From: Leptospirillum ferrooxidans C2-3
Lineage (GTDB): Bacteria; Nitrospirota; Leptospirillia; Leptospirillales; Leptospirillaceae
Assembly (NCBI RefSeq): GCF_000284315.1
Contig: NC_017094.1
Span: 527,486 to 591,485 of the forward strand
Direction of reading: 5' to 3'
Length of the DNA: 64,000 nt
The notes under the pieces: model-generated
Told to the model about the DNA's origin: nothing
Database searches by the model: none
Seen by the model: only the letters and a program-made list of their open reading frames with translations
In this document: positions 10,876 through 59,089 of the stretch, piece by piece
How the letters are laid out: every line of letters begins with the position of its first letter
Position numbering within the stretch: the first letter of the stretch is position 1
Translations under genes and position numbers: made by a program

Positions 10876-10895
10876 ATGGTATTCTGATATACCAT
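10876..10895. promoter_or_regulatory. Operator-like palindrome ATGGTAT-N6-ATACCAT (copy 1)
   Basis: Perfect seven-base inverted repeat with a six-base spacer in AT-rich DNA, 33 bases before the HD-domain gene. Identical arms recur at 27122 and 39897, and with one mismatch at 59070, always in front of genes. It probably binds a dimeric regulator. Confidence 0.8.
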
Positions 10896-10928
10896 AAAAA
10901 TATTAAGACAGATTATCATGGAGGATCA

Positions 10929-11498
10929 ATGCAGACAGTCGTTGGATTACCGGTCCTGAGCGCAGGGGAATGGATTCTGACCCACAGCGGACGGCATGTG
11001 GAATTGAGAAATCCCGATCCTGAGGAAATCGATATCTCAGACATCGCGCGGGGAATTTCGCGGGAATGCCGTTTTACCGGACAGTGCCGGGAATTTTATT
11101 CCGTAGCCCAGCATTCTGTTCTGGCAAGCCTTATCGTCTCTGCGGAGTTCGCTCTGGAAGCCCTCTTGCACGACGCCACCGAAGCCTTCATCAAGGATAT
11201 TCCCTCTCCACTCAAAAAACTGTTGCCAGAGTATTCGCGGATTGAAGGGATCCTCGAAGGGGTGATCCGACTAAAGTTTGGTCTTCCGGAAGAGATGAGT
11301 GTCCCCGTAAGAATAGCCGACCGTATCCTTCTCGCGACGGAAAAGCGGGATCTGATGGCGCACGATCCATGGGCGTGGCCCATTCTCGAAGGAGTCGAGC
11401 CTCTTTCAGAACAGATCGTTCCATGGTCTCCGGAGGTTTCGATGGAAAGATTCCTTCACCGTTTCGCCGAACTGGGAGGAGTGCTCCATGCAGCTTGA
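10929..11498 (+). CDS. HD-domain phosphohydrolase, YfbR-like
   Basis: 189 residues, ATG at 10929 after CATGGAGGATCA. Motifs of the HD superfamily in YfbR-type nucleotidases: VAQHSVLAS with the first His, ALLHDATEAFIKDIPSPLK with the HD pair and downstream metal ligands, and IADRILLATEKRDL late in the protein. Such enzymes remove phosphate from deoxynucleoside monophosphates and are common in phages and mobile elements. A role in nucleotide pools during plasmid transfer is inference. It lies directly behind the shared operator. Confidence 0.75.
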   Translation: MQTVVGLPVLSAGEWILTHSGRHVELRNPDPEEIDISDIARGISRECRFTGQCREFYSVAQHSVLASLIVSAEFALEALLHDATEAFIKDIPSPLKKLLPEYSRIEGILEGVIRLKFGLPEEMSVPVRIADRILLATEKRDLMAHDPWAWPILEGVEPLSEQIVPWSPEVSMERFLHRFAELGGVLHAA

Positions 11499-11712
11499 CG
11501 GCCTGGATTTCTGGGGAAACAAGTTCCGGGAAATTCAGACGCTTCTGTATCAGCGATGGAAGGACTGTTCGTTTCTGGGAATTCCGAATCTTCCTTCCTG
11601 GCCGGAAATCATGTCCTGTCCGGATCTTTCCGCCTTGCATGATCTCGAAAAACGCCTGGAAGGAGCTGGTGGAAAGGAAAAGAAGACCCGGAAAAAGAAG
11701 GAGGCGGCGTGA
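11488..11712 (+). CDS. Small hypothetical protein with basic tail
   Basis: 74 residues. The ATG at 11488 overlaps the end of the HD gene by 11 bases and its stop overlaps the GTG start of the nuclease. The C-terminus is strongly basic (KEKKTRKKKE). There is no signal or membrane segment. Operon position suggests a transfer-related job; no family recognised. Confidence 0.6.
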   Translation: MQLDGLDFWGNKFREIQTLLYQRWKDCSFLGIPNLPSWPEIMSCPDLSALHDLEKRLEGAGGKEKKTRKKKEAA

Positions 11713-12395
11713 GGTTTCTTTCGTCCTCCCGGATCACCGCCGGATTCTTGGTGCTTGTCATTCCGGGAATTCTTCTGGCGGGAGGGGCACAAGCGGGTGC
11801 CTGGCCCTTTCGCGGGTCCGAACATTTTTCTTCGTGTTCGAGACCTGTAACCTCCTCTCCAGAATCCCTTCTCGGAGAACATTACTCTCCGGAAGAGAAC
11901 CTCGAATCGATCGATGTGGACCTGATCGACCACGCCAGACGGTCGATTGAGATTGCCATGTATGCCTTCACGGATCGTCCGATCGCCGATGCGGTCATCC
12001 GGGCGTCCTCTCGCGGCGTCCACGTGTGGATTTACCGGGACGGCATTCAGATCAAAGACCGTGGTGACAAGTCGAGGCGCATTCTGTCCGCCTCCGGACA
12101 GAGCGGAGTCGTCCAGATCGAAGTGAAGAGGAATTCCTCAAGAAACATCATGCATTTGAAGGCGTATCTCATCGACGGGATGATCCTCCGGACCGGGTCG
12201 GCCAACTGGTCGCCCCCCGGAGAAGGCGCCTGGTGTTCCCGAGGAGAACGGCTTCACCGGGATCAGCAGGACAACAATCTTTTTATCACGAACGATCCCC
12301 GGGAGGTCCGGAAATTCGAATCGACGTTCCGGAGAATCTGGACACGGGAGACGAATCGTCCTTGGAATGAGAACTTGTCGAGAAGGAGATCTTGA
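11709..12395 (+). CDS. Secreted PLD-family nuclease (Nuc-like)
   Basis: 228 residues from a GTG at 11709. A signal peptide ends near AQAGA. The mature part has the phospholipase D nuclease fold: RRSIEIAMYAFTD at the front and one HxKxxxxD motif (HLKAYLID) followed by GSANWS. Proteins with a single HKD motif, such as Nuc of the IncN plasmid pKM101, dimerise to make one active site and are encoded in conjugation regions. Probably periplasmic. Role in transfer unproven. Confidence 0.82.
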   Translation: MRFLSSSRITAGFLVLVIPGILLAGGAQAGAWPFRGSEHFSSCSRPVTSSPESLLGEHYSPEENLESIDVDLIDHARRSIEIAMYAFTDRPIADAVIRASSRGVHVWIYRDGIQIKDRGDKSRRILSASGQSGVVQIEVKRNSSRNIMHLKAYLIDGMILRTGSANWSPPGEGAWCSRGERLHRDQQDNNLFITNDPREVRKFESTFRRIWTRETNRPWNENLSRRRS

Positions 12396-25600: not shown

Positions 25601-26308
25601 TTAACCGGAACTCCGTTCCTGGATCATCTCCGCGATTTCCCGGGCAGTCACCCCCAGCTTTTTGGCCAGTGCTTCGACGTCTTTCCATTCCCATGGGGTG
25701 CTCTTGTCCATCAGCGCGTCGAATGTCTCGATCGAGACGTTTCCCACTACGAGGTCAAAGAGGAACGGGCCAGGAACCAGGAGCGGTGGGGCATCCTTTT
25801 CAGAGGCGATTCCCGTTGCTTTCCATCTGGCTCTAGGGATCAGAGCGGGACGGATCCACGGAGTTCCCGCTTTTTGGGACAATGGGGATTCGCTCATTTT
25901 TGCAGGGAAGAGTTTTCTTAAAAGGACGATCCGGATATTTCCCGACCTGAGAAGGGCCGCCTGAGGTGCCTGTGAGAGAGAGGCTGGGCCATCCGGATCC
26001 GGAGATACGAGGGTCATCGTAACATCCGCTTCGAGAAACGCTTCCGCAGCGCCTGTCAGTGTTTCCAGTTCGTGAAGCGCCACGATCCAGACATGGACCC
26101 TGGAGGGGTCCAATTTCAGGGTGTCGGGGTCGAGGGATAGCGCCTTTAGAAGGCGGGCCTGGTTTTCCTCGGAAAGCGTCTCTCTGTCCCGAAGCCAGTT
26201 CGAGAGGTTGGAAGGGTGGAACCCGCAGACGCTGGCCCAATAGAGAACCGGTCGATCAGAAAGATCAACCAATATTCGGGCGAGTTTTGAAAGCTTCCGT
26301 GGTATCAA
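25601..26308 (-). CDS. HTH regulator, paralogue of the 9.5-kb regulator
   Basis: 235 residues from a TTG at 26308 that overlaps the stop of the EAL gene. The N-terminus contains a helix-turn-helix (VCGFHPSNLSNWLRDRETLS, then RLLKALSLDPDTL). After VHVWIVALHELE comes a central domain, then a C-terminal WEWKDVEALAKKLGVTAREIAEMI helix pair. The same layout occurs in the protein at 9487. It is transcribed with the EAL gene and may act at the shared ATGGTAT palindromes, one of which lies before that EAL gene. That link is inference. Confidence 0.7.
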   Translation of the reverse strand: MIPRKLSKLARILVDLSDRPVLYWASVCGFHPSNLSNWLRDRETLSEENQARLLKALSLDPDTLKLDPSRVHVWIVALHELETLTGAAEAFLEADVTMTLVSPDPDGPASLSQAPQAALLRSGNIRIVLLRKLFPAKMSESPLSQKAGTPWIRPALIPRARWKATGIASEKDAPPLLVPGPFLFDLVVGNVSIETFDALMDKSTPWEWKDVEALAKKLGVTAREIAEMIQERSSG

Positions 26309-27093
26309 TCCGTTTTTCTCCCAGCTTGGTAGTTATGAATACCATTAATTCCATTTTCGCTAACGATACCGAAGAGAGCGTTTTTTTTCAATTTTCCCCT
26401 GGTCAGTCCTCGGGAAAATTCTTCGATTGGTACCGGTTTTCCGTAAAACCAGCCTTGCCCCGAAGCGCATCCGATCTTTCCCGCAAAATGGACATGTGCC
26501 TCGGTTTCGAGTCCTTCCCCCAGAATACTGATCTCAGTCCTCCCAATTGCTCGCACAACGCCTTCGACAAGATTCCTGTCATTTCTATCCGTTGCCTGAA
26601 TGAGTTTACGGTCAATTTTCACGAAGTCGACGGACAGGTCCAGAAGTCTTGAGATATTGGAATGTCCTGTCCCAAAATCATCAATCGCAATTCCGAATCC
26701 CCTACGTTTCGCCTCGACAAGAACCGATAACTCGGATGGTTCAAGAGATTCCTCCAGTACTTCGATAACTGGCACGATCCGGGAGGGGAAACGGGACAGC
26801 CAGGGGAAAAGAAACGAAGACATGCATTGCCTGGGCGAAAGATTGAAGAAGGCCAAAAAAGGTTCTTCCCCAGGAGGGATCTCAGAGAGATCGGATGCGA
26901 CCTGTTCCATTTCCCATCTGGTGAACTCTTCCCACTCTCCCGTTCTTTCAATCTGGATCAACATCTCGACTGGGGTTCCGGCCAGAGGCCGGAATAGGGC
27001 TTCCGCTCCGACGGTTCGTCCGGTTTTGAGATCGACAATGGGTTGCCAGTGCAGACAAGATCCCGAAAGAGATTCCTCGAACGAATAGGACAT
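26305..27093 (-). CDS. EAL-domain c-di-GMP phosphodiesterase
   Basis: 262 residues; ATG at 27093 after AGAAGGATAAA. A stand-alone EAL domain: AEALFRP (EAL motif), FFNLSPRQ, EVLEES, IAIDDFGTGHSN, FVKIDR, ILGEGLET and GQGWFYGKP. Most metal and catalytic residues are in place, so it may degrade c-di-GMP, although the E-x-x-E element is slightly changed. It is divergent from dotD, with the shared operator between them. It may tune pilus or transfer activity through c-di-GMP. Confidence 0.85.
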   Translation of the reverse strand: MSYSFEESLSGSCLHWQPIVDLKTGRTVGAEALFRPLAGTPVEMLIQIERTGEWEEFTRWEMEQVASDLSEIPPGEEPFLAFFNLSPRQCMSSFLFPWLSRFPSRIVPVIEVLEESLEPSELSVLVEAKRRGFGIAIDDFGTGHSNISRLLDLSVDFVKIDRKLIQATDRNDRNLVEGVVRAIGRTEISILGEGLETEAHVHFAGKIGCASGQGWFYGKPVPIEEFSRGLTRGKLKKNALFGIVSENGINGIHNYQAGRKTD

Positions 27094-27121: not shown

Positions 27122-27141
27122 ATGGTATTGACTAATACCAT
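27122..27141. promoter_or_regulatory. Operator-like palindrome ATGGTAT-N6-ATACCAT (copy 2)
   Basis: Perfect arms with spacer TGACTA, 28 bases upstream of the EAL gene and about 180 bases upstream of dotD. A TATAAT-like sequence overlaps its left side. It could control both directions. Confidence 0.8.
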
Positions 27142-27321: not shown

Positions 27322-27891
27322 GTGGCATGGGTGATGACCTGGAAGGATTGGTGCAGGTGTTGTTTATGGACAAGTATTCTGGTGGGGGTGTCTGTAATGA
27401 TGACCGGCTGCGCATCATCGTCTGTCTCTTTCAAACAAAAGGTCACATCCATCCTCCAGGACGACTCCGCACCGAAGATCCTGTCCATTGCCGCCTTGCG
27501 CATCTCCCGGGACTGGGACCGTCTTCTGGCGTACCAGAGCCATCTTCCTCCGCAATCTCTTGGAATCTCCCGTGTTCAGAAAACGGGAACGATGGGACGA
27601 CGATTGACCCTCAAATATGTCGGACCGGTGGAGCCCTTCCTCCGGCATCTCGGAAAAACCGCCCGATGGAAACTTTCGGTGATTGGCAAGAGACCGGCGT
27701 CCCAACCCATGATCGAAATACGGTCGAAAAAAGAGCCTCTTTACGACATCCTTCGGGATGCCGGCGTGCAGATAACACCTGCGGCCTGGATTGTTCTTCG
27801 GCCCGAGGGTCGGGAGATCGACCTGATCTATCCGCCACCCATTCCCTCTCGAACGAGCAAAACGCAAGAAGGGCGGGTTTATGAAAAATAG
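27322..27891 (+). CDS. dotD: DotD (TraH)-like lipoprotein
   Basis: 189 residues. The lipoprotein signal has lipobox MMTGC near residue 30. The C-terminal part (VGPVEPFLRHLGKTARWKLSVIG, then LYDILRDAGVQITPAAWIVLRPEGREIDLIY) fits the secretin-N0-like fold of DotD. Gene order DotD-DotC-DotB-IcmT equals traH-traI-traJ-traK of IncI plasmids, which strongly supports the call. DotD helps assemble the outer-membrane ring with DotC and DotH. Upstream in-frame ATG choices are few; 27322 lacks a strong ribosome site. Confidence 0.75.
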   Translation: MAWVMTWKDWCRCCLWTSILVGVSVMMTGCASSSVSFKQKVTSILQDDSAPKILSIAALRISRDWDRLLAYQSHLPPQSLGISRVQKTGTMGRRLTLKYVGPVEPFLRHLGKTARWKLSVIGKRPASQPMIEIRSKKEPLYDILRDAGVQITPAAWIVLRPEGREIDLIYPPPIPSRTSKTQEGRVYEK

Positions 27892-28711
27892 GCTTGCCAT
27901 GTCGTTCCTTGCTCTTTCCCTTTGCCTTTCGCCAAAAATCGCATTTGCCGCCGGATTGCCTTCCGGGGCGAATTCCCGCCAGACGCTGCCGACCATCGGA
28001 CAGGCCGAACATCCAGTAAAGCCGGACGACAAGCTCCGGAAGCGGGCGCTTCGCCAGTCGGCCCAAAAAAAAGCGGCCTTGTCGTGGGGCGCCCAGACCG
28101 GGTATGCCAGAAAAACTAGTCTTCGGAACCGTTGGCTCAGGAAGGAGTCATTCCTCCTCGACCGGGTCTTCAGCTTCCGGCCGTTTCTGTCCACGGATGA
28201 GCATGTGCTTCTGCCTTCGGTCGATATCGGGAAGAGGGCATTCAAGCTTGAAGACAGAACCTCATCGGACTCGACGCTCGTGTCCTATCGCATTCATGAG
28301 CCGGCCAGGATTATTTCCATTCCTCCCACCTTCCGGGATTATCTGATCCTTTCTCCCGGGACGCCTAAAAAGGTCAATTCCCTTCTCCTTCCCAAAAATT
28401 TGAAGGAGAAAAAACTTTGGAAAAAATGGACGGACAGGGGATGGAATGCCGGCGAGCGACTCTCCGATCAGGCGTTCCGGATTGGAATGCGACGGCTTGT
28501 CAGGGCGATCGAGGGAAGAATCCGTTTTTATGAACTGACGCTCGCCGGCCAGATCGACCGGCCTACCTGGGCACGATCTCCGGCCGCCACGCTTCGGACG
28601 GGTGAAGTTCTCGAAATAGGGGACACGGTTCTCCGGATTACGAGACCGGCCCGGTTTACCGCATCGAAGCACTGGAAACCGTTAGAAGTGAAGGAGGAGG
28701 AAGAAAAGTGA
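27881..28711 (+). CDS. dotC: DotC (TraI)-like outer-membrane core protein
   Basis: 276 residues with a signal peptide (cut near AFAAG). Characteristic DotC features: RKRALRQSAQKKAALSWGAQ, then FLLDRVFSFRPFL, IPPTFRDYLIL, WKKWTDRGWNAGERLSDQAF and GRIRFYELTLAGQI. Legionella DotC is a lipoprotein, but this one has no lipobox cysteine, an oddity. It starts 11 bases before the end of dotD and overlaps the dotB start. Confidence 0.8.
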   Translation: MKNRLAMSFLALSLCLSPKIAFAAGLPSGANSRQTLPTIGQAEHPVKPDDKLRKRALRQSAQKKAALSWGAQTGYARKTSLRNRWLRKESFLLDRVFSFRPFLSTDEHVLLPSVDIGKRAFKLEDRTSSDSTLVSYRIHEPARIISIPPTFRDYLILSPGTPKKVNSLLLPKNLKEKKLWKKWTDRGWNAGERLSDQAFRIGMRRLVRAIEGRIRFYELTLAGQIDRPTWARSPAATLRTGEVLEIGDTVLRITRPARFTASKHWKPLEVKEEEEK

Positions 28712-29823
28712 GTCTTCCTCTTCCCGAACTTCGCGATCCGGTCCGGCATGACCGGGACAGTCTCGATTCCTTGCTCAGAACCCTCGTATCGGTCGGGGCC
28801 TCGGACATCCTTCTGGTTTCCGAATCCCCCGTCCGGGCCTATCTCCGGGGACGATGGGAGACGGTCGGAACGAGAGCGGTCAAGACCCACGAACTCGCGG
28901 ACATCCTGAACGCCATCGACATGGCGAACGCGTCTTCGATGGTGGCTTCGGGAACGGCTCGAAATATCGCCTACGAAGTCTCCTTGGGGAGCAGGGAGTC
29001 CCGTTTGAGGTTCAGGGTCAATGCGACGGGAACCCGGCGGTCCGGTCCCCGGGATCTGAAGATCGTTCTCCGGAGCATCCCTGACGTGCCTCCGACGCTC
29101 GAATCGATGGGGCTTCCTCCGGAACTTGTGGCTGCGCTTTTCCCCCTGGACGGGCTGGTGGGCGTGGCCGGCGCCACGGGATCCGGAAAAAGCACGCTCC
29201 TGGCGGCCAACCTTCGTGAAAAGCTCGAACGGGGCGGGTGCCATATCGCCACCGCGGAAGCGCCCATCGAATTTGTCTACGACAAGGTCGAGACTCGGGA
29301 AACCGGAATTATCGTCCAGAGCGAGGTTCCCACCCATCACCCTTCCTTTGGCAAGGCCGTGGAGGAGATGCTCCGGCAAAAGCCGGATGTGATCCTGGTC
29401 GGCGAATCACGAGACGCGGAGACGATCTCGAACACGGTATTGGCTTGTCAGACCGGGCATACCGCCTATACGACGATCCACACCAACGGAGTGGGAGAAA
29501 CCATCGGACGCATGGCGGAGGCCTTTCCCGGTCCAGAGCGGGATGCTGTGGCTTCCAAGATCCTTGCCGCCATGAGGGTTCTGGTTCACCAGAGGTTGAT
29601 CCGGAAAGCCGACGGTTCCGGACGGGTGGCTGTTCGGGAATGGCTCGTGTTCGACCGGGACATCAAAAGAACTCTCATGGCCTCACCCTGGTCCAACTGG
29701 CCGTTTCTGATCGGCGATATTCTTGTGAAACGGGGACAAAGTGCCTCCCAGGATGCCCGGCGTGTCTATGAGGCTGGTCTGATTGCCGAAGATTCCCTTC
29801 TGGCGATTGAGGGAGGCGCCTGA
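28708..29823 (+). CDS. dotB: DotB (TraJ) secretion ATPase
   Basis: 371 residues from a GTG at 28708 after AGGAGGAAGAAAA. PilT/VirB11-type ATPase: N-terminal domain with GASDILLVSESPVRAYL, Walker A VAGATGSGKSTLLA near residue 155, Asp box ATAEAPIEFVYD, Walker B KPDVILVGESRDAET, His box TGHTAYTTIHTN. It powers the type IVB channel from the cytoplasmic side. Order and sequence match IncI traJ and Legionella dotB. Confidence 0.92.
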   Translation: MSLPLPELRDPVRHDRDSLDSLLRTLVSVGASDILLVSESPVRAYLRGRWETVGTRAVKTHELADILNAIDMANASSMVASGTARNIAYEVSLGSRESRLRFRVNATGTRRSGPRDLKIVLRSIPDVPPTLESMGLPPELVAALFPLDGLVGVAGATGSGKSTLLAANLREKLERGGCHIATAEAPIEFVYDKVETRETGIIVQSEVPTHHPSFGKAVEEMLRQKPDVILVGESRDAETISNTVLACQTGHTAYTTIHTNGVGETIGRMAEAFPGPERDAVASKILAAMRVLVHQRLIRKADGSGRVAVREWLVFDRDIKRTLMASPWSNWPFLIGDILVKRGQSASQDARRVYEAGLIAEDSLLAIEGGA

Positions 29824-30083
29824 TGTGGAGATGGGCCTCCGGAGTTCCCCGTCTCGGTCCGGTCGACGCCCGGGCCGGGGTCGCGCTCCTGATTTTCTTT
29901 TTTCATATGCGGCTCTGGACGCTGGGAGTCGCGTTTCTTGGCGTGGCATTTTTTGGACTTCTTGAACGATTCGGCCTGACATTGCCGGTCGCCTGGCGTG
30001 TTCTTCTTCGGCTTCTCTCCGGCCCGGTTGTCTGGCCGGAACATCCGATGAAACCTGTGTACCGGTTCTACCGGGAATATTGA
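29823..30083 (+). CDS. icmT: IcmT (TraK)-like small membrane protein
   Basis: 86 residues, ATG overlapping the dotB stop. The line-up WRWASGVPRLGPVDARAGVALLIF, HMRLWTLGVAF, LLERFGLTLPVAWRVLLRLLSG matches the IcmT/TraK family, with one or two hydrophobic segments. Position right after dotB is the IncI traK position. It is an inner-membrane component of the channel. Confidence 0.85.
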   Translation: MWRWASGVPRLGPVDARAGVALLIFFFHMRLWTLGVAFLGVAFFGLLERFGLTLPVAWRVLLRLLSGPVVWPEHPMKPVYRFYREY

Positions 30084-30096
30084 AGAGGAGGACTCT

Positions 30097-31137
30097 ATGC
30101 CTGAACCATCCATTTCTGCTAAGGAGGATCATTCCGATCCGCAAGCTATTGATGTGGGGATCGATGATGGATACGCCGCCGTCAAGGTCGCCTGGTACGA
30201 CCCGAGCGGGGCGATCCGGACCCTGTCCATTCCTTCCCTTACCCGTCAAGGATCCCTGGGAGTTGGGTCTTTTGGAGAGAACGGAACCGTTGGAGGGTAC
30301 GAAACGGATGGGATTGTTTACACCGTAGGGCCAGATATCGGCGGTTCCGAAACGAGAATTCCTGACTACAACCTGTCGAGAACTGCGCGGGTATTGGCTC
30401 ATCATGCCCTTGTTCAGGCCGGATTCGGCGGAAAAGCCGTCCGCATCGCCTCGGGACTCCCTCTCAACCGGTATTTCAATGGAGGAAAAAAAGACGAGGA
30501 AAGGGTTGAGCAAAAAGTCTGGAACTTTGCCCAGCCGGTTCGCCGACTGGATGGAGGACAACCGGCGAGAATCGTTGCCCACAAAGTATTTGCCCAGGGG
30601 TTGACGGCGGCTGTCGACTGGTTTGTCGAGGGGAAAAACCCCCGTTCGCACAAAGGAAAGATCGGAATCGTCGATATCGGCGGTCAGACCATCGATATTT
30701 CTGTGGTCTGGCTTGACCAGAAAGGAGAGTTGATGACGAACCGCGACAACCTGGTGACCGAGGATATCGGGGTGCTCGATGTCCACAAGATCCTGAAACG
30801 CCAAATCATGAGTATTCACAAGGTTGACCACGTTTCCTCCGAAGACCTGGACAGGGCTTTGACCACGGGAAGCATCTGGATCTGGACAAAGGATCACTCC
30901 GTCCAGGATGAAATTGCCGCGGCTGTCCGCTCGGTCGGAGAGCAGCTTGAAGCGCCGATCCTTTCCGCATTTGGAAAAGAAATATCGAGTTTGGAAAGCA
31001 TCCTTTTTGTCGGGGGTGGAAGCTACCTCTTTCGGGATCTGGTGTCGATGTTTCCCAACGCGGTCACCCCGCACCAGCCAGAATTCGCCAACGCCCGGGG
31101 TCTTCTCAAGGCCCTGTCCATGAGAAAGGAAGCTTGA
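30097..31137 (+). CDS. parM: ParM/StbA actin-like segregation ATPase
   Basis: 346 residues; ATG at 30097 after AAGAGGAGGACTCT. Actin-like fold: VGIDDGYAAVKVAW (phosphate 1), KIGIVDIGGQTIDISVVW (phosphate 2) and SILFVGGGSYLF (adenosine loop). The IASGLPLNRYF segment is typical of ParM/StbA. It would form filaments that push plasmid copies apart. Oddly, it is embedded between the IVB transfer genes and the pilus operon, with no clear centromere repeats just upstream. The following small gene is the likely adaptor. Confidence 0.88.
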   Translation: MPEPSISAKEDHSDPQAIDVGIDDGYAAVKVAWYDPSGAIRTLSIPSLTRQGSLGVGSFGENGTVGGYETDGIVYTVGPDIGGSETRIPDYNLSRTARVLAHHALVQAGFGGKAVRIASGLPLNRYFNGGKKDEERVEQKVWNFAQPVRRLDGGQPARIVAHKVFAQGLTAAVDWFVEGKNPRSHKGKIGIVDIGGQTIDISVVWLDQKGELMTNRDNLVTEDIGVLDVHKILKRQIMSIHKVDHVSSEDLDRALTTGSIWIWTKDHSVQDEIAAAVRSVGEQLEAPILSAFGKEISSLESILFVGGGSYLFRDLVSMFPNAVTPHQPEFANARGLLKALSMRKEA

Positions 31138-31604
31138 TGCCTCGGCCCCCCTCTCCAACCGGAAGGGCCAGGCGGATTCGGATCGGGATAGTTTGTCATA
31201 CCGGGATCGAACCCCTCCGGCAATTTTGGGAGGTCTTTTCCGGAATGAGAAGGGCGCACCGGCAGGAATACCTGCGGACGTGTCTGTTTCTGGGTTTCCG
31301 CTTCGGATGCCCGAAGAAAGAGGAATGGCCGGAACCAGAGCCAAACGGGAAGATCCGGAATATCCGGGTCGATTTCTTCGTCGATCATCCTTATCTCGGC
31401 CAATTTTTACAGAGATACGATTCGAGAGAATCGTGGGACAAAAATACCCGCTGGGTTTTGAAAACGCTCATTCTTGGACATGAAATTCTTTCAGGAAATG
31501 ACCCGGGCAGGGGCGAAAAAGAAATGCATCCGATGGGGAATCAATCAGTCTCTTCCCCTGTTGAAAAGGAACCGGAAGATATTTTGGGAGGACTGTTCAA
31601 TTGA
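31137..31604 (+). CDS. Probable ParR/StbB-like adaptor
   Basis: 155 residues, ATG at 31137 overlapping the parM stop. It is basic and aromatic, with a likely DNA-binding N-terminal half (RARRIRIGIV, RRAHRQEYLRTCLFLGF) and an acidic C-terminal end (PVEKEPEDILGGLF) that could bind ParM. This layout is that of ParR/StbB partners. No direct family match was recognised, so the name rests on position. The stop overlaps the TTG start of the pilL-like gene. Confidence 0.5.
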   Translation: MPRPPSPTGRARRIRIGIVCHTGIEPLRQFWEVFSGMRRAHRQEYLRTCLFLGFRFGCPKKEEWPEPEPNGKIRNIRVDFFVDHPYLGQFLQRYDSRESWDKNTRWVLKTLILGHEILSGNDPGRGEKEMHPMGNQSVSSPVEKEPEDILGGLFN

Positions 31605-32029
31605 AACGATCAAGCCTGACTGTGGCTATGGGGGTATTTGTTCTTCTCAAGGCCTTTGAACCTTCAGCCCAAGCTTACTTCTGCGGGGATCCGCTTTCGG
31701 ATAACTGCTCCGCTCCCCAGGAGACTCAAAAAGCTCCTTCGAATGGAGAGTCTCCGGTCAATAAGGAGACCCATTCGCTCGCAACCTTCGTCCTGGTTCC
31801 GGGAGAGTCCCTGAAAGAGAATTTCGAAGCATGGGGAAAGGCCTCCGGATGGAAGGTCCTCTGGCATTCGGAATATAGCTTTCCGGTCAAGGCCAGGTAT
31901 ACAGCCGGGAGAAGTTTTCTGGGGGCGGTTCGGCGAAGCATCAAAATCTTCAACGCCGGCTCCGGAGGATGGCTGAAAGTTCACGCGTATCTTTCGAACC
32001 ATGTGCTGCTGGTCGAGGATGGTCGATGA
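31601..32029 (+). CDS. pilL: PilL/TcpQ-like pilus biogenesis protein
   Basis: 142 residues from a TTG at 31601 with GGGAGG upstream. Signal peptide ends near AQAY. The C-terminal half (VPGESLKENFEAWGKASGWKVLWHSEY, FLGAVRRSIKIFN) resembles the TcpQ/PilL domain, which helps place the secretin in type IVb pilus systems. Much shorter than R64 PilL. First gene of the pilus operon. Confidence 0.7.
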   Translation: MKRSSLTVAMGVFVLLKAFEPSAQAYFCGDPLSDNCSAPQETQKAPSNGESPVNKETHSLATFVLVPGESLKENFEAWGKASGWKVLWHSEYSFPVKARYTAGRSFLGAVRRSIKIFNAGSGGWLKVHAYLSNHVLLVEDGR

Positions 32030-32676
32030 GAAGAATCGCCCCTGTATTTCTGGTGCTTGCTATCCTTCTTTCCGGGTGTATTCCGGAAAGGGATCTGAAT
32101 TTGTCGGATGTGTCCCCGCAAACATTCGAGTCCCTTCCCTATGAGGGCGGAGGGCTCCTGTGCCGGACGCCCGTCCCTGTCCCGGATGTCCGGGTCGTCT
32201 CCCGCACGGTTCATGCCATGGCGGGATCCGAAGGGCGAATCCGGGAGGCTGTCCTCCCTTCCGGAATGGCTTTTGGTGTCTGGACCTCTGCGGTTCGGGC
32301 CCGATCGATCAGAGATTACATTCGAAGCATCTCCCGCAGCCGGAAGGTTCGGGTCTCCGTCAGCCTGTCCCGGATCGACCGCGCGGTTCCTTATGTTTCG
32401 AGAACGTTTTTCGTGCGGACCCGACATGCGTTCATGGCCGCCCGCTGGAAGGAAGGAGACAGAATTTTGGCTGTGAGGGGATTCTTCATGCGTACTGGCC
32501 CCCATATTGTGCCGGTTTTTTCCATGGAAGAACGATCATTGGGCTGGTTTGCCTGTCGTACGGAGACACCGGGATTTTCCGGCGGGAGGATCTCTTTCGA
32601 TTCCTCCCGGGCGACCGTCAAAACCGGTACCGAAACCTTGAGAATCGATTGGGAGACAAAAGATGCGAAACGTTAA
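32026..32676 (+). CDS. Pilus-operon lipoprotein of unknown function
   Basis: 216 residues; ATG at 32026 overlaps the previous stop. Lipoprotein signal with lipobox LLSGC. The mature region is beta-rich with several Arg residues and one late Cys. It occupies the slot between pilL and the secretin, where R64 has pilM, but it does not look like PilM; a PilM-like gene lies at 40522 instead. Possibly an envelope helper of the secretin. Confidence 0.65.
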   Translation: MRRIAPVFLVLAILLSGCIPERDLNLSDVSPQTFESLPYEGGGLLCRTPVPVPDVRVVSRTVHAMAGSEGRIREAVLPSGMAFGVWTSAVRARSIRDYIRSISRSRKVRVSVSLSRIDRAVPYVSRTFFVRTRHAFMAARWKEGDRILAVRGFFMRTGPHIVPVFSMEERSLGWFACRTETPGFSGGRISFDSSRATVKTGTETLRIDWETKDAKR

Positions 32677-34483: not shown

Positions 34484-34486
34484 CCA

Positions 34487-38782: not shown

Positions 38783-39867
38783 AAACAATTTCCTTGTCCG
38801 GAAACCTCCATGCATTCAAAAAGAGGCTCTCGTTCGGCCCTGGCGTTCGACGAAAGTTCTACGCCGACCTGGCTTCCATTCTCCGGACAGACTCATCGAT
38901 GAGCCCAGTCCAGATCCGTGTCGCGATCGAGGAGTTCAAGAAACTTCCCTCCGCACCGAAGGCCGCGTTAGTGGAAATCGGAGCGGGGCTCGGCCGCGGT
39001 CGCGATTTTTCCAAAGCAATTGAAAATCTGACTCCGGAGTCGGAATCGATGATTCTCCATGCGGCGGAATCCACCGGCGATTCCAGAATCATGGTTCGCC
39101 TTCTTTCGACTCTTGCCGCAAATATGGACGAGTCCAGAAAAATCCGAAGGGCCTTTCTGGGAGCACTCCAGCAGCCGGCATTTCTGTTTTTGAATATCGG
39201 GGTGATTACCGTCTATATTTCGGATTCCCTGCTCCCCAAGATCTTCCAGGCGTTCAAGATCTCCCAGGACCGGTTGTTCGGGGCGGCCAGAATCTCTTTC
39301 GACCTCTTCTCCTTCGTTCACCATTTCTGGTTATTGATCGTGCTGTTCCCCTTCCCCGTCATCGGGGTGGTGTGGGGATCCTTGCGTCGGGATTTTCCCG
39401 GACGCAGGTTTCTGGATCGTCTTCCGCCCTGGTCCATCTACCGGATGATGATGGGAACGGAATTTCTGCTGGGTTTGTCAGCCATGCTGGAAGCGGGCAT
39501 TCCCGTTATGCAGGCGTTCGAGCAGATTCGTAAACAGGCGCCGCCGTACCTCCGGGCGAGGATTGTTCCCGTCATGAAAATTTACCGGCGGACCGGAAAA
39601 CTGGGAGATGCGATGGAGAAGAGCCGGACCCACTTCCCTTCCGACGAGATCATCGTCCGGCTTTCCCTTCGGGAAAAATACGGCGATCTGGGACCGGCCC
39701 TCGCAGAATTCGCGCGGGACTGGAAGGAGGACGGTTTGCCGAAAATAGAACGTCAGGCCCAATATCTGAATTACGGTGCCATGACACTGGCCGCTGTGGC
39801 GATCGGTTTTCTGGGGCTTGGAATACTCCAGATCGTGCAGCAGGCGATGGGCGGACTTGGGGTTTGA
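38779..39867 (+). CDS. pilR: PilR inner-membrane pilus platform (GspF-like)
   Basis: 362 residues; the ATG at 38779 overlaps the pilQ stop. GspF/PilC-type protein with two related halves, each a cytoplasmic helical bundle followed by membrane segments (about residues 140-160, 195-215 and 338-358). The second half has LGLSAMLEAGIPVMQAFEQI and RTGKLGDAMEKS. It forms the assembly platform for pilin with PilQ. Confidence 0.88.
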   Translation: MKTISLSGNLHAFKKRLSFGPGVRRKFYADLASILRTDSSMSPVQIRVAIEEFKKLPSAPKAALVEIGAGLGRGRDFSKAIENLTPESESMILHAAESTGDSRIMVRLLSTLAANMDESRKIRRAFLGALQQPAFLFLNIGVITVYISDSLLPKIFQAFKISQDRLFGAARISFDLFSFVHHFWLLIVLFPFPVIGVVWGSLRRDFPGRRFLDRLPPWSIYRMMMGTEFLLGLSAMLEAGIPVMQAFEQIRKQAPPYLRARIVPVMKIYRRTGKLGDAMEKSRTHFPSDEIIVRLSLREKYGDLGPALAEFARDWKEDGLPKIERQAQYLNYGAMTLAAVAIGFLGLGILQIVQQAMGGLGV

Positions 39868-39896
39868 TGATCCTGTTTTCTATCTAATAAATTATA

Positions 39897-39916
39897 ATGG
39901 TATAGTAAAATACCAT
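39897..39916. promoter_or_regulatory. Operator-like palindrome ATGGTAT-N6-ATACCAT (copy 3)
   Basis: Perfect arms with spacer AGTAAA, 24 bases before pilS. The left arm overlaps a TATAAT, so a bound protein would cover a likely -10 element. It separates pilS-pilM-pilV from the upstream pilus genes. Confidence 0.82.
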
Positions 39917-39939
39917 GTTAAAATGAAGAGGAGGAAGAA

Positions 39940-40509
39940 ATGACAAAGACAATCGCCTGGTGGAAACAGAATCGTATTCGGGTGATCCGGACACTCTCGG
40001 ACGAAAGGGGTGTTGCTGACGATGGACCCATGTCCATTCTGCTGGGAATCGGCTTGGGGATCATTCTTCTGGCCGCCCTGGTAGGCGTTTTTAAATTCGC
40101 CTTCTCGAGCACGACCAGCGCCATCTCGTCCTCCGGGGCATTTGAAATTCAGACCGGAGTGAAACAGGTGGCTTCTCCGGGAAATTATGGGTCAGGAGAT
40201 CTGACGTCTGCCCTCATTGCCTCGAAATCCGTTCCCAGCAACATGATTATTCCTGGAAATACGACGACGCTCCAGGGGCCGACGGGAACCTCTTTCTATA
40301 CGGTGACCGGAAACTACAGCACATTCTCGATCACCTTGGCCGGAATTACGAGCTCGGGATGCATGAGAACATTGGAGCAGACCACGACAGGAAATTCCTG
40401 GTACTCCGTCTCGGTCAACGGATCGAGCGTCACTCAACCGGTAAGCGTTCAGATGGCCCAGGGGGTCTGTTCCTCCGGAAGCGACACGATCACCTGGGTT
40501 TCGGACTGA
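39940..40509 (+). CDS. pilS: PilS major pilin (type IVb)
   Basis: 189 residues; ATG at 39940 after GAAGAGGAGGAAGAA. A basic leader ending DERG is followed by a hydrophobic helix (ILLGIGLGIILLAALVG) and a Ser/Thr/Gly-rich globular domain with two cysteines (SGCMRT and GVCSSG) that can form the usual C-terminal disulfide loop. PilV shares the DDRG sequence before its helix, so cleavage after RG is likely. The glutamate normally at position 5 of the mature pilin is not there. The gene follows its own operator-like palindrome, suiting a highly expressed pilin. Confidence 0.82.
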   Translation: MTKTIAWWKQNRIRVIRTLSDERGVADDGPMSILLGIGLGIILLAALVGVFKFAFSSTTSAISSSGAFEIQTGVKQVASPGNYGSGDLTSALIASKSVPSNMIIPGNTTTLQGPTGTSFYTVTGNYSTFSITLAGITSSGCMRTLEQTTTGNSWYSVSVNGSSVTQPVSVQMAQGVCSSGSDTITWVSD

Positions 40510-40521
40510 AGCGGAGAACAC

Positions 40522-41001
40522 ATGTGGCTTTTGCTGGGGATCCTTCCGATCGCACTCCTTCTGTCCGGGATGTCCATGACTGTTTCCCGAACAAGTGTGC
40601 CGACTCTTGAAAATGCGAACCGGTTTTCCCTCGAGGCAAACCAGGAAGCGACCCTGTTTCAGTTGTATCGAGAGGCGGTGGCAAATTATCTCGACGCCAA
40701 TCCGGGCTTTAACGGGGAGGTTCCTGTCTCCTCACTGAGTCTTCCTATTGGAACGATCCTTCCGTCGATGTTCGGAAACACCGTTTCGGGAGGGGTTGCC
40801 TGGACCTGGATCGCCCCTTCCTCATCTCTTGTCTACTCTCCGGATGTTGTGATGGGACCGGAGTTTGCCAAGTCCTTCGGTTCTCTTCTTGTGGGGGTGA
40901 ACAAAAATGGAACCTTTGCTTCACCCTCGGGAATTTCCGTTTCCATCGGTGTTCCATCGTTCGTTCCGAATGGCTCTATCGTGTCTTTTTGGGAGGTTTG
41001 A
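40522..41001 (+). CDS. pilM: PilM pilus protein
   Basis: 159 residues, ATG at 40522 just after the pilS stop. One N-terminal hydrophobic helix, then TLFQLYREAVANYLDANPGFNGEVPVSSLSLP and a beta-rich tail, the pattern of the PilM family of R64-type pili. Displaced from its R64 position (between pilL and pilN) to between pilS and pilV. Needed for pilus function in R64; mechanism unclear. Confidence 0.75.
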   Translation: MWLLLGILPIALLLSGMSMTVSRTSVPTLENANRFSLEANQEATLFQLYREAVANYLDANPGFNGEVPVSSLSLPIGTILPSMFGNTVSGGVAWTWIAPSSSLVYSPDVVMGPEFAKSFGSLLVGVNKNGTFASPSGISVSIGVPSFVPNGSIVSFWEV

Positions 41002-41004
41002 TCA

Positions 41005-42027
41005 ATGTCAAAACATTGCTTTCTGAAATCCTTGGCGGATTTTCGGCTGGATGATCGGGGAAACTCATCTTTGCTGGGAATGATCCTTGCAACGGCTCTC
41101 GGCACGATCCTGATTGCGAACACGGTTCCTTTCTGGCTCGAGACACAACATCACGCGCTCATGGACCAGACGACCGCCCAACAGATCCGACAGGTCTCGG
41201 ACGGATTGGCCGGGTATACGAAGGCCTATTATTCCGCGATCGAGGGGGTGAGCACGGCCACCAAGCCGGCGGTCATTCCAATCTCCGCTCTTGTTGCCAC
41301 AGGGTTCTTGCCGGCCGGAACGAACACCGTCGATCCGTATGGGCAGACAGTTGTGGGGGAGATTCTTCAGCCCATTGCCGGTATTCTTGTCGGAGCGGTG
41401 GTCACCCAGGGGGGAACGGCCCCGGCCGGCGCGCACCTGAACCAGCTCGCAACCCTGATCGGGGCTCAAGGGGGATTTGTCCCAACGTCGGATATCCTGT
41501 CCCTCCCTGGGATTTGCGGAACAAACTGCTATCAGGGATCCGGTGGAACATGGAAGGCGAGTTTTTCCCAATACCCTTTTACGGGAGTGGGGCCGGGAAG
41601 CCTGATTGCCCTTCAGCAGTTCAATGCAAACAACATGCCCCAGGATTTTCTCTATCGCTCAAATATTCCTGGATTCCCCCAGGCGAACCAGATGCAGACC
41701 AGTATCAATATGAACGGGAACAACCTCAATAACGCCAACCAGGTGCAGACCTACAACCTGAACAGCCCGAACGGGACCGTCAACATGGACGGAAATTCAC
41801 TTTCTTCCGGTTCGATCAACACGAATGGACAACCAATCTACTCGGGAGTGGCAAATATTAACGGACCTACTGGATATGCCCAATGCTCTCTTCCTCACCC
41901 CGGATATGGGTGTGGGTTAGTAGGACCGACTTACTCTGCGGGCGTAAGTATAGGAGGTGTCCCTATCTGTTTTGGGGTGTTTGGTGCCGATAACAATTCG
42001 GCAGTTTTTCTTGTTCCATGCTTGTAG
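41005..42027 (+). CDS. pilV: PilV tip adhesin with shufflon-encoded C-terminus
   Basis: 340 residues. Leader with DDRG followed by a pilin helix (LLGMILATALGTILIAN). The constant body includes ADGLAGYTKAYY-like and TNTVDPYGQTVV segments and a tail of Asn-rich repeats (NMNGNNLNNANQVQT). The variable C-terminus begins at GQPIYSG, exactly where an inverted repeat lies (41830). The current 65-residue end is VANINGPTGYAQC to FLVPCL. Two other ends, also starting QPI-x-x-G, lie reversed downstream. In R64 the PilV end decides which recipient cells are recognised. Confidence 0.88.
   Translation: MSKHCFLKSLADFRLDDRGNSSLLGMILATALGTILIANTVPFWLETQHHALMDQTTAQQIRQVSDGLAGYTKAYYSAIEGVSTATKPAVIPISALVATGFLPAGTNTVDPYGQTVVGEILQPIAGILVGAVVTQGGTAPAGAHLNQLATLIGAQGGFVPTSDILSLPGICGTNCYQGSGGTWKASFSQYPFTGVGPGSLIALQQFNANNMPQDFLYRSNIPGFPQANQMQTSINMNGNNLNNANQVQTYNLNSPNGTVNMDGNSLSSGSINTNGQPIYSGVANINGPTGYAQCSLPHPGYGCGLVGPTYSAGVSIGGVPICFGVFGADNNSAVFLVPCL
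41828..41847 (+). repeat. Shufflon recombination site 1 (in pilV)
   Basis: Contains CAACCAATCTACTCGGG (41830-41846), repeated in inverted orientation at 42302-42318. The site reads GQPIYSG in the pilV frame and marks the constant/variable border. Confidence 0.88.
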
Positions 42028-52402: not shown

Positions 52403-52463
52403 AGAAAAAGGGGGATGACAATATTGCAAATTTGATTCCCCTTAAGATGGAAGGAGTCGCGTC

Positions 52464-53300: not shown

Positions 53301-53402
53301 AAGGAAGATTGATTTTCAAGGCAATTGATAATAAGGGAGCGGGGGAGTGTGCCAATCTATCAAATTGATCACTCCTCCATCGATTGAGTTATCCTAATTT
53401 CG

Positions 53403-53753: not shown

Positions 53754-53771
53754 AAGAGAAACCTTTTCGAT

Positions 53772-55868: not shown

Positions 55869-55884
55869 CGATATTGTGACTTGG

Positions 55885-56511: not shown

Positions 56512-56802
56512 TTAGGTCCCCGAAACTTTCGCACAGAAGCGGGTGAAGAAGACATAATTCTTTGTCTCGTACTGGATCGAAAAGATCTTTTTGATTCCGG
56601 CCTTCCTTGCGGCATCGAGAATCGTATCACCGCTTCCGGTTGTCGTGTCGGCGGCGAAGGTTCCGTTACATACCTCCGTCGATTTGAGATCCACGGGTTT
56701 TTTCGTTTCGACCATTGGATTCATGGGGGCTTCAGGCATGGCCAGTGTGCAACCGCCAAGAATGATGGTTCCCAGAATGAGTGGCGCCAAGACTTTCTTC
56801 AT
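56512..56802 (-). CDS. TRL-like family lipoprotein
   Basis: 96 residues; ATG at 56802 after GAAGGAGGTATCA. Lipoprotein signal with lipobox ILGGC. The C-terminal part (GSGDTILDAARKAGIKKIFSI) matches the GDASIxxAAKxxGITKI pattern of TRL-like small lipoproteins, whose function is unknown. Last gene of the minus-strand operon that carries dotI. Confidence 0.7.
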   Translation of the reverse strand: MKKVLAPLILGTIILGGCTLAMPEAPMNPMVETKKPVDLKSTEVCNGTFAADTTTGSGDTILDAARKAGIKKIFSIQYETKNYVFFTRFCAKVSGT

Positions 56803-56864
56803 TGATACCTCCTTCGATGGCATGACCCGCCATAATTCTGGCGGGAAGGTTTGTGATCCGGCCG

Positions 56865-57587
56865 TCACAGCTTGTGTTCCTTCGCCAGAAACTGGGCAAC
56901 GGCCAGACCCTTCGGGTGAACCAGGACGCTGCGCCTGACCACCATGAGAGTGACAAGAAGATTCTGGGAAACGCTCGACTTGGCTGCTTGGTAGGTGACC
57001 AGGATGGGCACCTGGATCTTCCAGACGTAAACGCCCTTCAAAAGTCCCTTGGCGAGGATAACTCCTGCTTCTGTGGGAACGGCAGACGCTACCATGCGGT
57101 TGTCGGAGACGAGCTTCAGGTTGCCGGAGGCCTTGAGCGATCCGATAAACGAGGCAAATCCCTCTTTCGTGAATTCGGGGGAAAGCCCGGACAGGGCGGA
57201 TCTCCAGTTCACAAAATCATACGAATAGGCGGCGGTGGCCACATTTGTGGCCCAGGACACAACGGCACGGTCGGACGCGGCGGGGTGGGACAACGGTACA
57301 AGCGGCAGGATCCGGCCATCGTTCGTGGCGGCAAAATAGACGGGACTTTTGTGGACGAGCGCCCATCCCATCGCACCATTCAGAAGGACTGACGCCAGAA
57401 GAGCCCCCGCTCCATAGCGGAGAATCGCTGACTTGTTCCGGTACTCATCCTTGTAGAAGTCGTTCCGGAAACGAACAAACTCGGCACCTCCCTCCCGGAT
57501 CGGACTCGATCCGGGAGCAGAGGCCTTTTGTCCCGCTGAACCCCCTGTCGTTTGTTCCTTTTGTTTTCCGAATCCGAAGAGTCCCAT
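56865..57587 (-). CDS. dotI: DotI/IcmL (TraM) inner-membrane transfer protein
   Basis: 240 residues. One transmembrane helix at about 54-77, then the DotI/IcmL signature: VYFAATNDGRILPLVPL, VVSWATNVATAAYSYDFVNWRSAL, EFTKEGFASFIGSL, VYVWKIQVPILVTYQ and VVRRSVLVHPKGLAVAQF. The periplasmic domain is VirB8-like. In IncI plasmids this gene (traM) lies directly before traN; here it sits more than 48 kb away in a separate minus-strand operon. Its start overlaps the RadC stop. Confidence 0.9.
   Translation of the reverse strand: MGLFGFGKQKEQTTGGSAGQKASAPGSSPIREGGAEFVRFRNDFYKDEYRNKSAILRYGAGALLASVLLNGAMGWALVHKSPVYFAATNDGRILPLVPLSHPAASDRAVVSWATNVATAAYSYDFVNWRSALSGLSPEFTKEGFASFIGSLKASGNLKLVSDNRMVASAVPTEAGVILAKGLLKGVYVWKIQVPILVTYQAAKSSVSQNLLVTLMVVRRSVLVHPKGLAVAQFLAKEHKL
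57492..57517. repeat. Perfect palindrome in dotI N-terminus
   Basis: CTCCCGGATC-GGACTC-GATCCGGGAG: ten-base perfect arms within the codons for the SSPIREG segment, about 70-95 bases after the dotI start. Confidence 0.8.
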
Positions 57588-58594
57588 CAGAAGCCCATTC
57601 CGTCACGGGATCTCTGGCGGGAGGTCTGGGGCTCGACCGACTTCTCTTCCCGGGCTTGTGGGGCGGAGTGGCTTCGATCTTTTCCAGAGGTTTCCATCCG
57701 GAGACATTCCTTCATGGATCCGGTCAGTAACTCGATATCACGTTTGGCCAGCGCACTTCCTGGTTGTGATGGATAATTTTCAATCGCCTTCCGGTAATAT
57801 TCGGCGGCTTTTTTCCAGTCATGGTTGCGTTCTGCCTCCGAAGCCCGGTTCCTCAAAACCGCTGTCGATGCTTTTTCTGCCGGGAGTTCTTCTCGGGATT
57901 GGGGGGTGGTTTCCCGACTCCCGTCGTTTTCGGCAGCCTGACTCATTCCGCGCTCTTCACGGAACGCTCCCCGGTCCCGGAGGCTCACAAAGGCTCCATC
58001 GCCGATCACTACATGATCGACTACCCGGATTCCCAACAAAATGCCCGCTTCGTTCAGACGTACGGTCAGGTTATAGTCATCCGTGGAAGGCTCGGGATTT
58101 CCTGACGGATGGTTGTGCAGAAAGATGACCGACGCAGCCGAGTCCCGGATCACGGGATTGAAAACCTCTCGTGGATGGACAAGCGTCATAGTCAAAGATC
58201 CTTCCGAGATTTTATGAAGATCGATCACCTGATGTTTCTGATCCATCGAAATCGCATAGAAACACTCTTTTTTCGCATCCTTTGTTTGCCCACTGAAAAT
58301 CCGATAAGCGTCTTCGGCGCTGTTGATGGACATTCCCCGGTCGATGCCCTCGTTCGCCAGGCGTTCTCCCAGGACCAGTGCAGCTCCAAGTTTCTTTCCC
58401 TGAACATCCGTGAGCCCCAAGGTTTCTTTTAGTTCGGTTTGTGTCATCCGGGAGAGATCTCTGAGATTGACGTTCTCCGGGCATTTTGTTCCGGTGATGC
58501 GTTCGACCAGCACCCAGTCCGGCTCGTCTCTCAGTTTTGTCGTGGAGAGAGGTTCCGGAGGAAAAAGCCCTGGAATGAGTTGCAGGCGGCTCAT
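57587..58594 (-). CDS. radC: RadC/JAB-domain protein with TPR-like tail
   Basis: 335 residues; ATG at 58594 after GGGAGGTGAGTG. RadC plan: helix-hairpin-helix-like N-terminus, then the JAMM metal site with IFLHNHPSGNPEPSTDD, and VVDHVVIGDGAFVSLRDRG. The C-terminal 130 residues are extra, with a tetratricopeptide-like pair (AERNHDWKKAAEYYRKAIENYP) and a charged end. RadC-like genes are common on plasmids and islands; their role is unclear. Overlaps both neighbours by one base. Confidence 0.85.
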   Translation of the reverse strand: MSRLQLIPGLFPPEPLSTTKLRDEPDWVLVERITGTKCPENVNLRDLSRMTQTELKETLGLTDVQGKKLGAALVLGERLANEGIDRGMSINSAEDAYRIFSGQTKDAKKECFYAISMDQKHQVIDLHKISEGSLTMTLVHPREVFNPVIRDSAASVIFLHNHPSGNPEPSTDDYNLTVRLNEAGILLGIRVVDHVVIGDGAFVSLRDRGAFREERGMSQAAENDGSRETTPQSREELPAEKASTAVLRNRASEAERNHDWKKAAEYYRKAIENYPSQPGSALAKRDIELLTGSMKECLRMETSGKDRSHSAPQAREEKSVEPQTSRQRSRDGMGF

Positions 58595-58794
58595 CACTCA
58601 CCTCCCTTTGAGTTCTTCATCCGTTCCCCGAGCGATTTCATCTCACGAAGGAGCTCGAAGGCGTCGGGATCTGTTTCGGACAACCGGGCAAGAGGATCGA
58701 GTGAGATGAGCAAGGGACGCCCCAGGGTTCTTTCAAGTAATTCGGGTTCGTTTCCAACCAGAAGATAGCTCTTTGCCTTGTCGCTTTCCGTCAT
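58594..58794 (-). CDS. Small hypothetical protein
   Basis: 66 residues, ATG at 58794 overlapping the previous stop by four bases (ATGA) and the RadC start by one. Reads MTESDKAKSYLLVGNEPELL, then a helical Glu/Lys-rich end. Couplings on both sides support translation. Function unknown. Confidence 0.65.
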   Translation of the reverse strand: MTESDKAKSYLLVGNEPELLERTLGRPLLISLDPLARLSETDPDAFELLREMKSLGERMKNSKGGE

Positions 58795-59024
58795 ATAAGC
58801 TCTCCCGCGGTTTCGAGAATGTCCCGTTCGTCGGCAATGACTCCTCCCTTGGCCCGTTCTTTTTCGACGAGGCCCAGGATCTTGGTGATATCGGCCGGTT
58901 TCACGCCCAGTTCGTCCGCGAGTTGCTTGACGGCGTCTTTCAGTGTTTCTTGAGTTTCCTTCAGTTCCTCTTTCTGGTTCAGAATCGCTTCGAATCTTTT
59001 TTTGTTGGCGGGATCGAGGTGCAT
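58791..59024 (-). CDS. Small coiled-coil protein, first gene of dotI operon
   Basis: About 77 residues from the ATG at 59024, nine bases after AGGAGG; an upstream in-frame ATG at 59042 contains that same AGGAGG. A coiled helix (ILNQKEELKETQETLKDAVKQLADEL) is followed by a short globular end. It could be a small regulator. Transcribed divergently from topoisomerase III, with the shared palindrome between. Confidence 0.65.
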   Translation of the reverse strand: MHLDPANKKRFEAILNQKEELKETQETLKDAVKQLADELGVKPADITKILGLVEKERAKGGVIADERDILETAGELI

Positions 59025-59069
59025 AGTGGCGTTCCTCCTCATAAACACTCTGGTCATTCATTAAATTAT

Positions 59070-59089
59070 ATGGTATTATCAATTACCAT
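59070..59089. promoter_or_regulatory. Operator-like palindrome (copy 4, one mismatch)
   Basis: ATGGTAT-TATCAA-TTACCAT, one base different from the other three. It lies 45 bases upstream of the dotI operon start and 48 bases upstream of topoisomerase III, in AT-rich DNA, so it could control both directions. Confidence 0.75.

What the first reader, a model, noticed from the sequence alone, without database searches (positions are those of the whole stretch)
10876..59089. One 20-bp operator-like palindrome at four scattered promoters
ATGGTAT-N6-ATACCAT is perfect at 10876, 27122 and 39897 and has one mismatch at 59070. All lie in AT-rich gaps just before genes: HD phosphohydrolase; EAL/dotD; pilS; dotI operon/topoisomerase III. 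At 39897 an arm overlaps a TATAAT. Fixed spacer and placement suggest a regulon linking transfer, pilus and c-di-GMP genes.
Basis: partly seen in the sequence, partly recalled or inferred. Interest (0 to 1): 0.85.

Follow-up and report, generated by a model that had tools for sequence, protein, structure and literature searches.

The report
Shared operator across an ICE's promoters
A 95-kb mobile DNA element in an iron-oxidising bacterium (probably Leptospirillum) carries the same 20-base palindrome at six promoters of its conjugation genes and nowhere else in the genome, and a related element in another genus keeps all six in the same places, so this is almost certainly the binding site of a master switch for the element's transfer genes.

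Summary
These six are the only copies with at most one mismatch in the 2.56-Mb genome. All lie inside one 95.5-kb ICE bounded by a 50-bp tRNA-Lys repeat, in spacers 20-48 bp before start codons. A related element in another genus (G100:C28) has all six at the orthologous promoters: 79 of 84 arm bases are identical, against 53% in the N6 and 43% in the flanks. So it is a genuine, selected DNA operator for the element's conjugation regulon (dot/icm, pil, topoisomerase III, EAL). The box covers predicted -10/-35 elements, which suggests a repressor. The best candidate regulator is the XRE-type HTH protein 25601-26308(-). It is the only conserved HTH gene lying in an operon (EAL-HTH) behind a box in both elements; the 9487 protein is disfavoured. 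Regulator identity and repression are inferred, not shown. The c-di-GMP link rests on one EAL gene. This works like the KorA regulons of conjugative plasmids, with a new operator and an unnamed regulator family.

The parts
2928..2947 (.). Box 1, ATGGTATCTGAAAATAACAT (1 mismatch), 20 bp before a 68-aa gene; not in the finding
   Evidence: G100 counterpart C28:32201
10876..10895 (.). Box 2, perfect, 33 bp before the HD-domain gene
   Evidence: G100 counterpart C28:41594, G078 counterpart C39:351 (both perfect)
27122..27141 (.). Box 3, perfect, between the divergent EAL-HTH operon (minus) and dotD (plus); N6 forms TTGACT, a -35-like hexamer, with TTATAT 18 bp on
   Evidence: G100 counterpart C28:58636 (perfect)
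39897..39916 (.). Box 4, perfect, 23 bp before pilS; TATAAT at 39893-39898 overlaps the left arm
   Evidence: G100 counterpart C28:72154 (1 mismatch)
59070..59089 (.). Box 5 (1 mismatch), between the dotI operon (minus) and the topoisomerase III gene (plus)
   Evidence: G100 counterpart C28:83152 (perfect). Box 6 lies beyond the window at 72810-72829, 21 bp before dotA (minus); G100 counterpart C28:98224
26326..26345 (.). Weak seventh site (2 mismatches) in the 3' end of the EAL gene, 17 bp before the HTH start; tentative
   Evidence: score 18.4; the G100 counterpart 57829 scores only 11.6; half-site coincides with codons Asn-Gly-Ile
25601..26308 (-). HTH protein, 235 aa, XRE-like N-terminal domain; best candidate for the protein that binds the boxes
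   Evidence: second gene of the EAL-HTH operon behind Box 3; 63% identical ortholog behind the same box in G100
26305..27093 (-). EAL domain protein (c-di-GMP phosphodiesterase type), first gene of the EAL-HTH operon
27382..42027 (+). dotD, dotC-type, dotB-type ATPase and pil genes (secretin, PilO, ATPase, T2SSF, pilS, pilV); Box 3 in front, Box 4 before pilS
2968..10864 (+). 68-aa gene followed by a same-strand run including SSB-like, DotH (6918), DotG/TrbI-like (8065), 9487 HTH and prepilin peptidase (10322); operon structure inferred
10929..11498 (+). HD-domain phosphohydrolase-like gene behind Box 2
   Evidence: sub-threshold YfbR-like
56512..59024 (-). Operon behind Box 5: small coiled-coil protein, 66-aa protein, RadC, DotI, small lipoprotein-like protein
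59138..61438 (+). Topoisomerase (type IA, topoisomerase III-like) behind Box 5
9487..10227 (+). HTH-like paralog, considered and disfavoured as the regulator

Best explanation
The box is the operator of an element-encoded, dimeric DNA-binding regulator of the ICE's transfer genes. A dimer binds the two ATGGTAT arms on top of the core promoter (extended -10 inside an arm, or -35 inside N6) and blocks RNA polymerase at six promoter regions: the dotH/G run, the HD gene, EAL-HTH and dotD-pil, pilS, the dotI operon and topoisomerase III, and dotA. The regulator is most likely the XRE-type HTH protein 25601-26308(-), made from the EAL-HTH operon behind Box 3 and so repressing itself. The regulon would keep transfer genes low until repression is relieved. 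Shown here: the set of sites, its restriction to the ICE and its conservation in a second element. Inferred: protein binding, repression rather than activation, and the identity of the protein. My estimates: true operator regulon 0.95, repressor 0.75, 25601 as the protein 0.6.
For: Six sites with <=1 mismatch in the genome, all in the ICE. All six at orthologous promoters in G100, arms 94% identical against 43% in flanks; third element G078 keeps one before its HD gene. Clean score gap between these six and everything else. Predicted promoter hexamers lie inside or across the box: TGGTATnnT at pilS, topoisomerase and dotA in both elements; TTGACT-N17/18-TTATAT at dotD in both. At four starts (68-aa gene, pilS, dotA, EAL) the box ends only 20-28 bp from the start codon, too close for an activator site upstream of the -35. 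25601 is in both elements behind a box, with its recognition helix kept, and its N-terminal domain models as an XRE/P22 C2/SinR-type fold.
Against: No binding or expression data. The CI-like S24 repressor is also conserved in both elements with a similar recognition helix. G078 has a box but no 25601 ortholog was found (its assembly is fragmented and 87% complete). G089 has a 43% homolog but no recognisable box before its HTH or dotD genes. Promoter predictions are consensus matches only, built on E. coli-type frequencies.
Confidence: 0.55

Rival explanations
1. Same operator regulon, but the bound protein is the S24-peptidase CI-like repressor (window -1532 to -792, minus) or its Cro-like partner, so that DNA damage would induce transfer, as SetR does in SXT-type ICEs (SetR from general knowledge).
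For: Both genes are on both elements (56-59% and 66% identical); HTH_3 plus Peptidase_S24 domains; recognition helix region conserved.
Against: The divergent CI/Cro spacer, where such proteins normally bind, has no box in either element and is itself conserved with a different sequence.
Confidence: 0.2
2. The boxes are activator sites: a transfer activator binds them to switch on the transfer operons.
For: At dotD the box lies around the predicted -35, where an activator could act; conjugation activators are common (general knowledge).
Against: At most starts the box lies on the predicted -10 or start point and within 20-33 bp of the start codon, leaving no room downstream for a promoter plus ribosome-binding site.
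Confidence: 0.17
3. The palindrome acts as an RNA hairpin in the leader transcripts.
For: The arms fold as a 7-bp stem with a 6-nt loop in three of four leaders tested; the box is close to the ribosome-binding site at several genes.
Against: The fold is no better than shuffles at three of four sites. One-arm changes are not compensated in the other arm, and letters rather than pairing are conserved. At dotD the predicted promoter puts the box upstream of the transcript.
Confidence: 0.04
4. The boxes are partition or maintenance sites (centromere-like) scattered over the element.
For: A dispersed palindrome on a mobile element; an actin-like ParM homolog is present (30097).
Against: All six sit on promoters and none is inside a gene; ParM systems use clustered repeats (general knowledge).
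Confidence: 0.03

Closest known systems
KorA regulon of conjugative plasmid R388 (and KorA of RK2)
   Same: One element-encoded regulator acting on several transfer promoters and on its own promoter; in R388 KorA represses the type IV secretion promoters and itself (PMC3937220). RK2 KorA uses a palindromic operator at several promoters (from memory).
   Different: Different operator sequence and regulator; here a tRNA-integrated ICE with Dot/Icm-type (MPF-I) transfer genes in Nitrospirota; repression not shown.
SetR of SXT/R391 ICEs and ImmR of ICEBs1 (from general knowledge)
   Same: HTH repressors that hold ICE transfer genes silent; the 25601 model's N-terminal domain matches the ImmR DNA-binding domain among many XRE folds (Z 9.3, rmsd 2.7 over 63 residues).
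   Different: Those act mainly at one regulatory promoter region; here the operator is spread over six transfer promoters. SetR is an S24 protein like the CI-like gene here, not like 25601.
BluF/BluR and PdeR(YciR)/MlrA: EAL proteins paired with a DNA-binding regulator (trigger enzymes; PMC5052742 found, details from memory)
   Same: An EAL enzyme encoded together with a DNA-binding regulator.
   Different: Only gene adjacency is seen here; no interaction is known and the regulator is XRE-type, not MerR-type.

Membership tests
Element-wide operator regulon (KorA-like logic) | Same operator at several promoters of one mobile element and not elsewhere in the host | tested here: met
Element-wide operator regulon (KorA-like logic) | Operators conserved at the same promoters in related elements | tested here: met
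   six of six in G100, one in G078; not in the more distant G086/G089 elements
Element-wide operator regulon (KorA-like logic) | Regulator gene under its own operator | tested here: inconclusive
   25601 lies in the EAL-HTH operon behind Box 3 in both elements, but that it is the regulator is inferred
Element-wide operator regulon (KorA-like logic) | Repression of the boxed promoters | not testable with these tools
   only promoter overlap is seen
KorA protein family | Sequence homology of the regulator to KorA | tested here: inconclusive
   no KorA family among Pfam or NCBIfam hits of 25601; not claimed as a member
XRE/lambda-repressor-like HTH proteins | N-terminal HTH of the XRE fold | tested here: met
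   25601: HTH_31 and HTH_3 below curated cut-offs; model residues 1-65 match SinR, P22 C2 and C proteins, Z about 10, rmsd about 2
S24 CI/Cro switch (SetR-like) | Box in the CI/Cro divergent promoter | tested here: not met
Integrative and conjugative element | Integrase, att repeats at a tRNA, relaxase, coupling protein and type IV transfer genes | tested here: met

The most novel reading that the evidence does not exclude
The EAL phosphodiesterase and the HTH protein, made from one self-regulated operon, work as a sensor-switch pair: depending on c-di-GMP, the EAL protein binds or releases the HTH repressor, so the ICE ties conjugation (pilus and Dot/Icm machinery) to the host's planktonic or biofilm state. 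The HTH family would be a new class of regulators of MPF-I conjugative elements.
Probability: 0.12. Interest if true: 0.75.

Novelty: new member of a known kind. Interest (0 to 1): 0.5.

Why it matters
It defines, from sequence alone, the transfer regulon of a Dot/Icm-type ICE in the deep-branching acidophile group Leptospirillum: six promoter regions, an operator with letter-level conservation and a named candidate regulator. I found no paper describing how such ICEs are held silent, and the prediction can be tested with one purified protein and six short DNAs. The regulator's family has no curated name and also occurs beside a conjugation gene in a gammaproteobacterium, so it may be a wider class of transfer regulators.

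Tried and rejected
Chance: rejected. Exact matches in 296 phylum genomes outside G000, G100 and G078: one (G277, near a contig end), at or below background. The one-mismatch hits in G001, G002, G039 and G089 had no shared transfer genes beside them, so I treat them as background. Viral contigs: 80 rows listed before the scan hit its limit, one site each, uninformative; no 25601 relative in viral contigs or plasmids. Test of regulator and operator changing together in G089/G086: orthologous promoters there lack the box and I found no single replacement palindrome, so inconclusive. Other regulator candidates set aside: 58791 coiled-coil protein (behind a box, but absent from G100), RHH 21133 (absent from G100), RHH 15542 (near the relaxase genes, no box). 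Fold search: only the N-terminal domain matched; the C-terminal part of 25601 was hardly tested. A suspected recent exchange of the secretin gene (98% protein identity) was dropped: the DNA is only 76% identical.

Full report
Check of the observation. Scanning the whole 2,559,538-bp genome gives six sites with at most one mismatch: window 2928, 10876, 27122, 39897, 59070 and 72810 (the last 8.8 kb beyond the window). Two of these were not in the finding. By simple letter counting, about 0.4 such sites would be expected in the genome and 0.015 in the element (own calculation). The pattern read backwards, as a control, gives no site with at most one mismatch. The sites with two mismatches outside the element are at the level expected by chance.

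What it lies in. All six lie in an integrative and conjugative element. A 50-bp repeat of the 3' end of tRNA-Lys(CTT) marks its ends, at window -10861 to -10812 and 84640 to 84689, about 95.5 kb apart. An integrase gene lies beside the tRNA. The element carries a TrwC relaxase, a coupling protein, Dot/Icm-type (MPF-I) transfer genes and thin-pilus genes. A nearly complete Dot/Icm set has been reported in L. ferriphilum (PMC5880901).

Position. Every box is in a spacer: 20 bp before the 68-aa gene 2968 that heads the dotH/G run; 33 bp before the HD gene; 28 bp before EAL (and in front of dotD on the other strand); 23 bp before pilS; 45 and 48 bp before the dotI operon and topoisomerase III; 21 bp before dotA. 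A matrix built from all 13 sites separates them cleanly over the element and 68 kb of flanks: 23.4-30.0, then 18.4 for a weak site just before the HTH gene 25601, then 11.5 or less. That seventh site is tentative: it lies in EAL coding sequence, and the G100 counterpart scores only 11.6.

Conservation. Among 21 genomes of the family, G100 (JAMCWM010000003.1, a Nitrospirae MAG of another genus) carries a related element on contig C28 with all six boxes at the orthologous promoters. The transfer proteins around the boxes mostly share 55-88% identity, so the two elements have diverged. Of the arm positions, 79 of 84 are identical between the elements, against 53% for N6 and 43% for 40 bp on each side. 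G078 keeps a perfect box before its HD gene. Departures from the consensus in the 13 sites always affect one arm only.

Mechanism. Conserved letters rather than conserved pairing, divergent genes served by one box, and a fixed 20-bp dyad point to a dimeric DNA-binding protein. Predicted sigma-70 elements overlap the box: TGGTATnnT (extended -10) in the left arm at pilS, topoisomerase and dotA in both elements and at HD in this one; a -35 TTGACT in N6 with TTATAT 17-18 bp on at dotD in both. The short distance to start codons leaves no room for an activator site upstream of a -35 at four of the starts. I therefore favour a repressor, at about 0.75.

Which protein. An element-encoded regulator should be in both elements. 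That leaves mainly the HTH protein 25601, the CI-like S24 repressor and its Cro-like partner. Only 25601 lies behind a box in both (EAL-HTH operon, Box 3 and G100:58636), which would give autoregulation. Its ortholog is 63% identical with the recognition helix kept (PSNLSNWLR / PANLSNWLR). Its N-terminal domain models as an XRE fold. The CI/Cro spacer has no box. The 9487 protein is a distant relative without a box directly before it, and its nearest G100 relative has a different helix and place. Members of this HTH family are few; a gammaproteobacterial one (Pseudoxanthomonas kaohsiungensis, L059) lies near a homolog of the large ATPase-like gene 81541-84501 of this ICE, with a second HTH gene of similar type beside it (the second assignment is by eye). 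Counter-points are the unresolved CI-like protein, no ortholog found in the fragmented G078 genome, and the absence of the box in G089/G086.

Comparison. The logic is that of KorA in R388, one repressor over several transfer promoters and its own (PMC3937220). Operator and regulator are different, so this is a new member of a known kind, not a KorA homolog. The c-di-GMP element is limited: the EAL protein keeps the expected motifs by eye (EAL, DDFGTG, KIDR; alignment), but the HD protein is not recognised as HD-GYP and the GGDEF/EAL cluster at 44339-56090 has no box.

Verdict.

Noticed in passing
window 41005-43708: Probable shufflon: pilV with a Shufflon_N domain, a 30-bp inverted repeat (41817-41846 and 42302-42331, 83%) with a third partial copy near 42640, and a tyrosine recombinase gene at 42689-43708.
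   Followed up: partly
window -10861 to 84689 (beyond the window on both sides): The ICE ends are a 50-bp direct repeat of the tRNA-Lys(CTT) 3' end; the element is about 95.5 kb.
   Followed up: yes
window 44339-56090: c-di-GMP and chemotaxis cargo (HD_5, protoglobin-PAS-GGDEF-EAL, MCP, HDOD, PAS-GGDEF-EAL) without boxes; mostly absent from the G100 element.
   Followed up: partly
window 72877-79889 (beyond the window): Genes that look like a type I restriction-modification set (judged by eye) divergent from dotA; the first starts 47 bp from box 6 on the other side.
   Followed up: no
L059 (Pseudoxanthomonas kaohsiungensis) 4277-5738: Two adjacent genes that look like members of the 25601 HTH family, near a homolog of the ICE gene 81541-84501: a hint of a wider family of transfer regulators.
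   Followed up: partly
window 58791-59024: 77-aa coiled-coil protein with a weak match to a phage transcription-regulator family (phrog_639), first gene behind Box 5; present in G089 but not in G100.
   Followed up: partly
window 32663-34483: The secretin gene's C-terminal 305 aa are 98% identical to G100 although the DNA of the region is only 76% identical, so this protein is under unusually strong constraint.
   Followed up: partly
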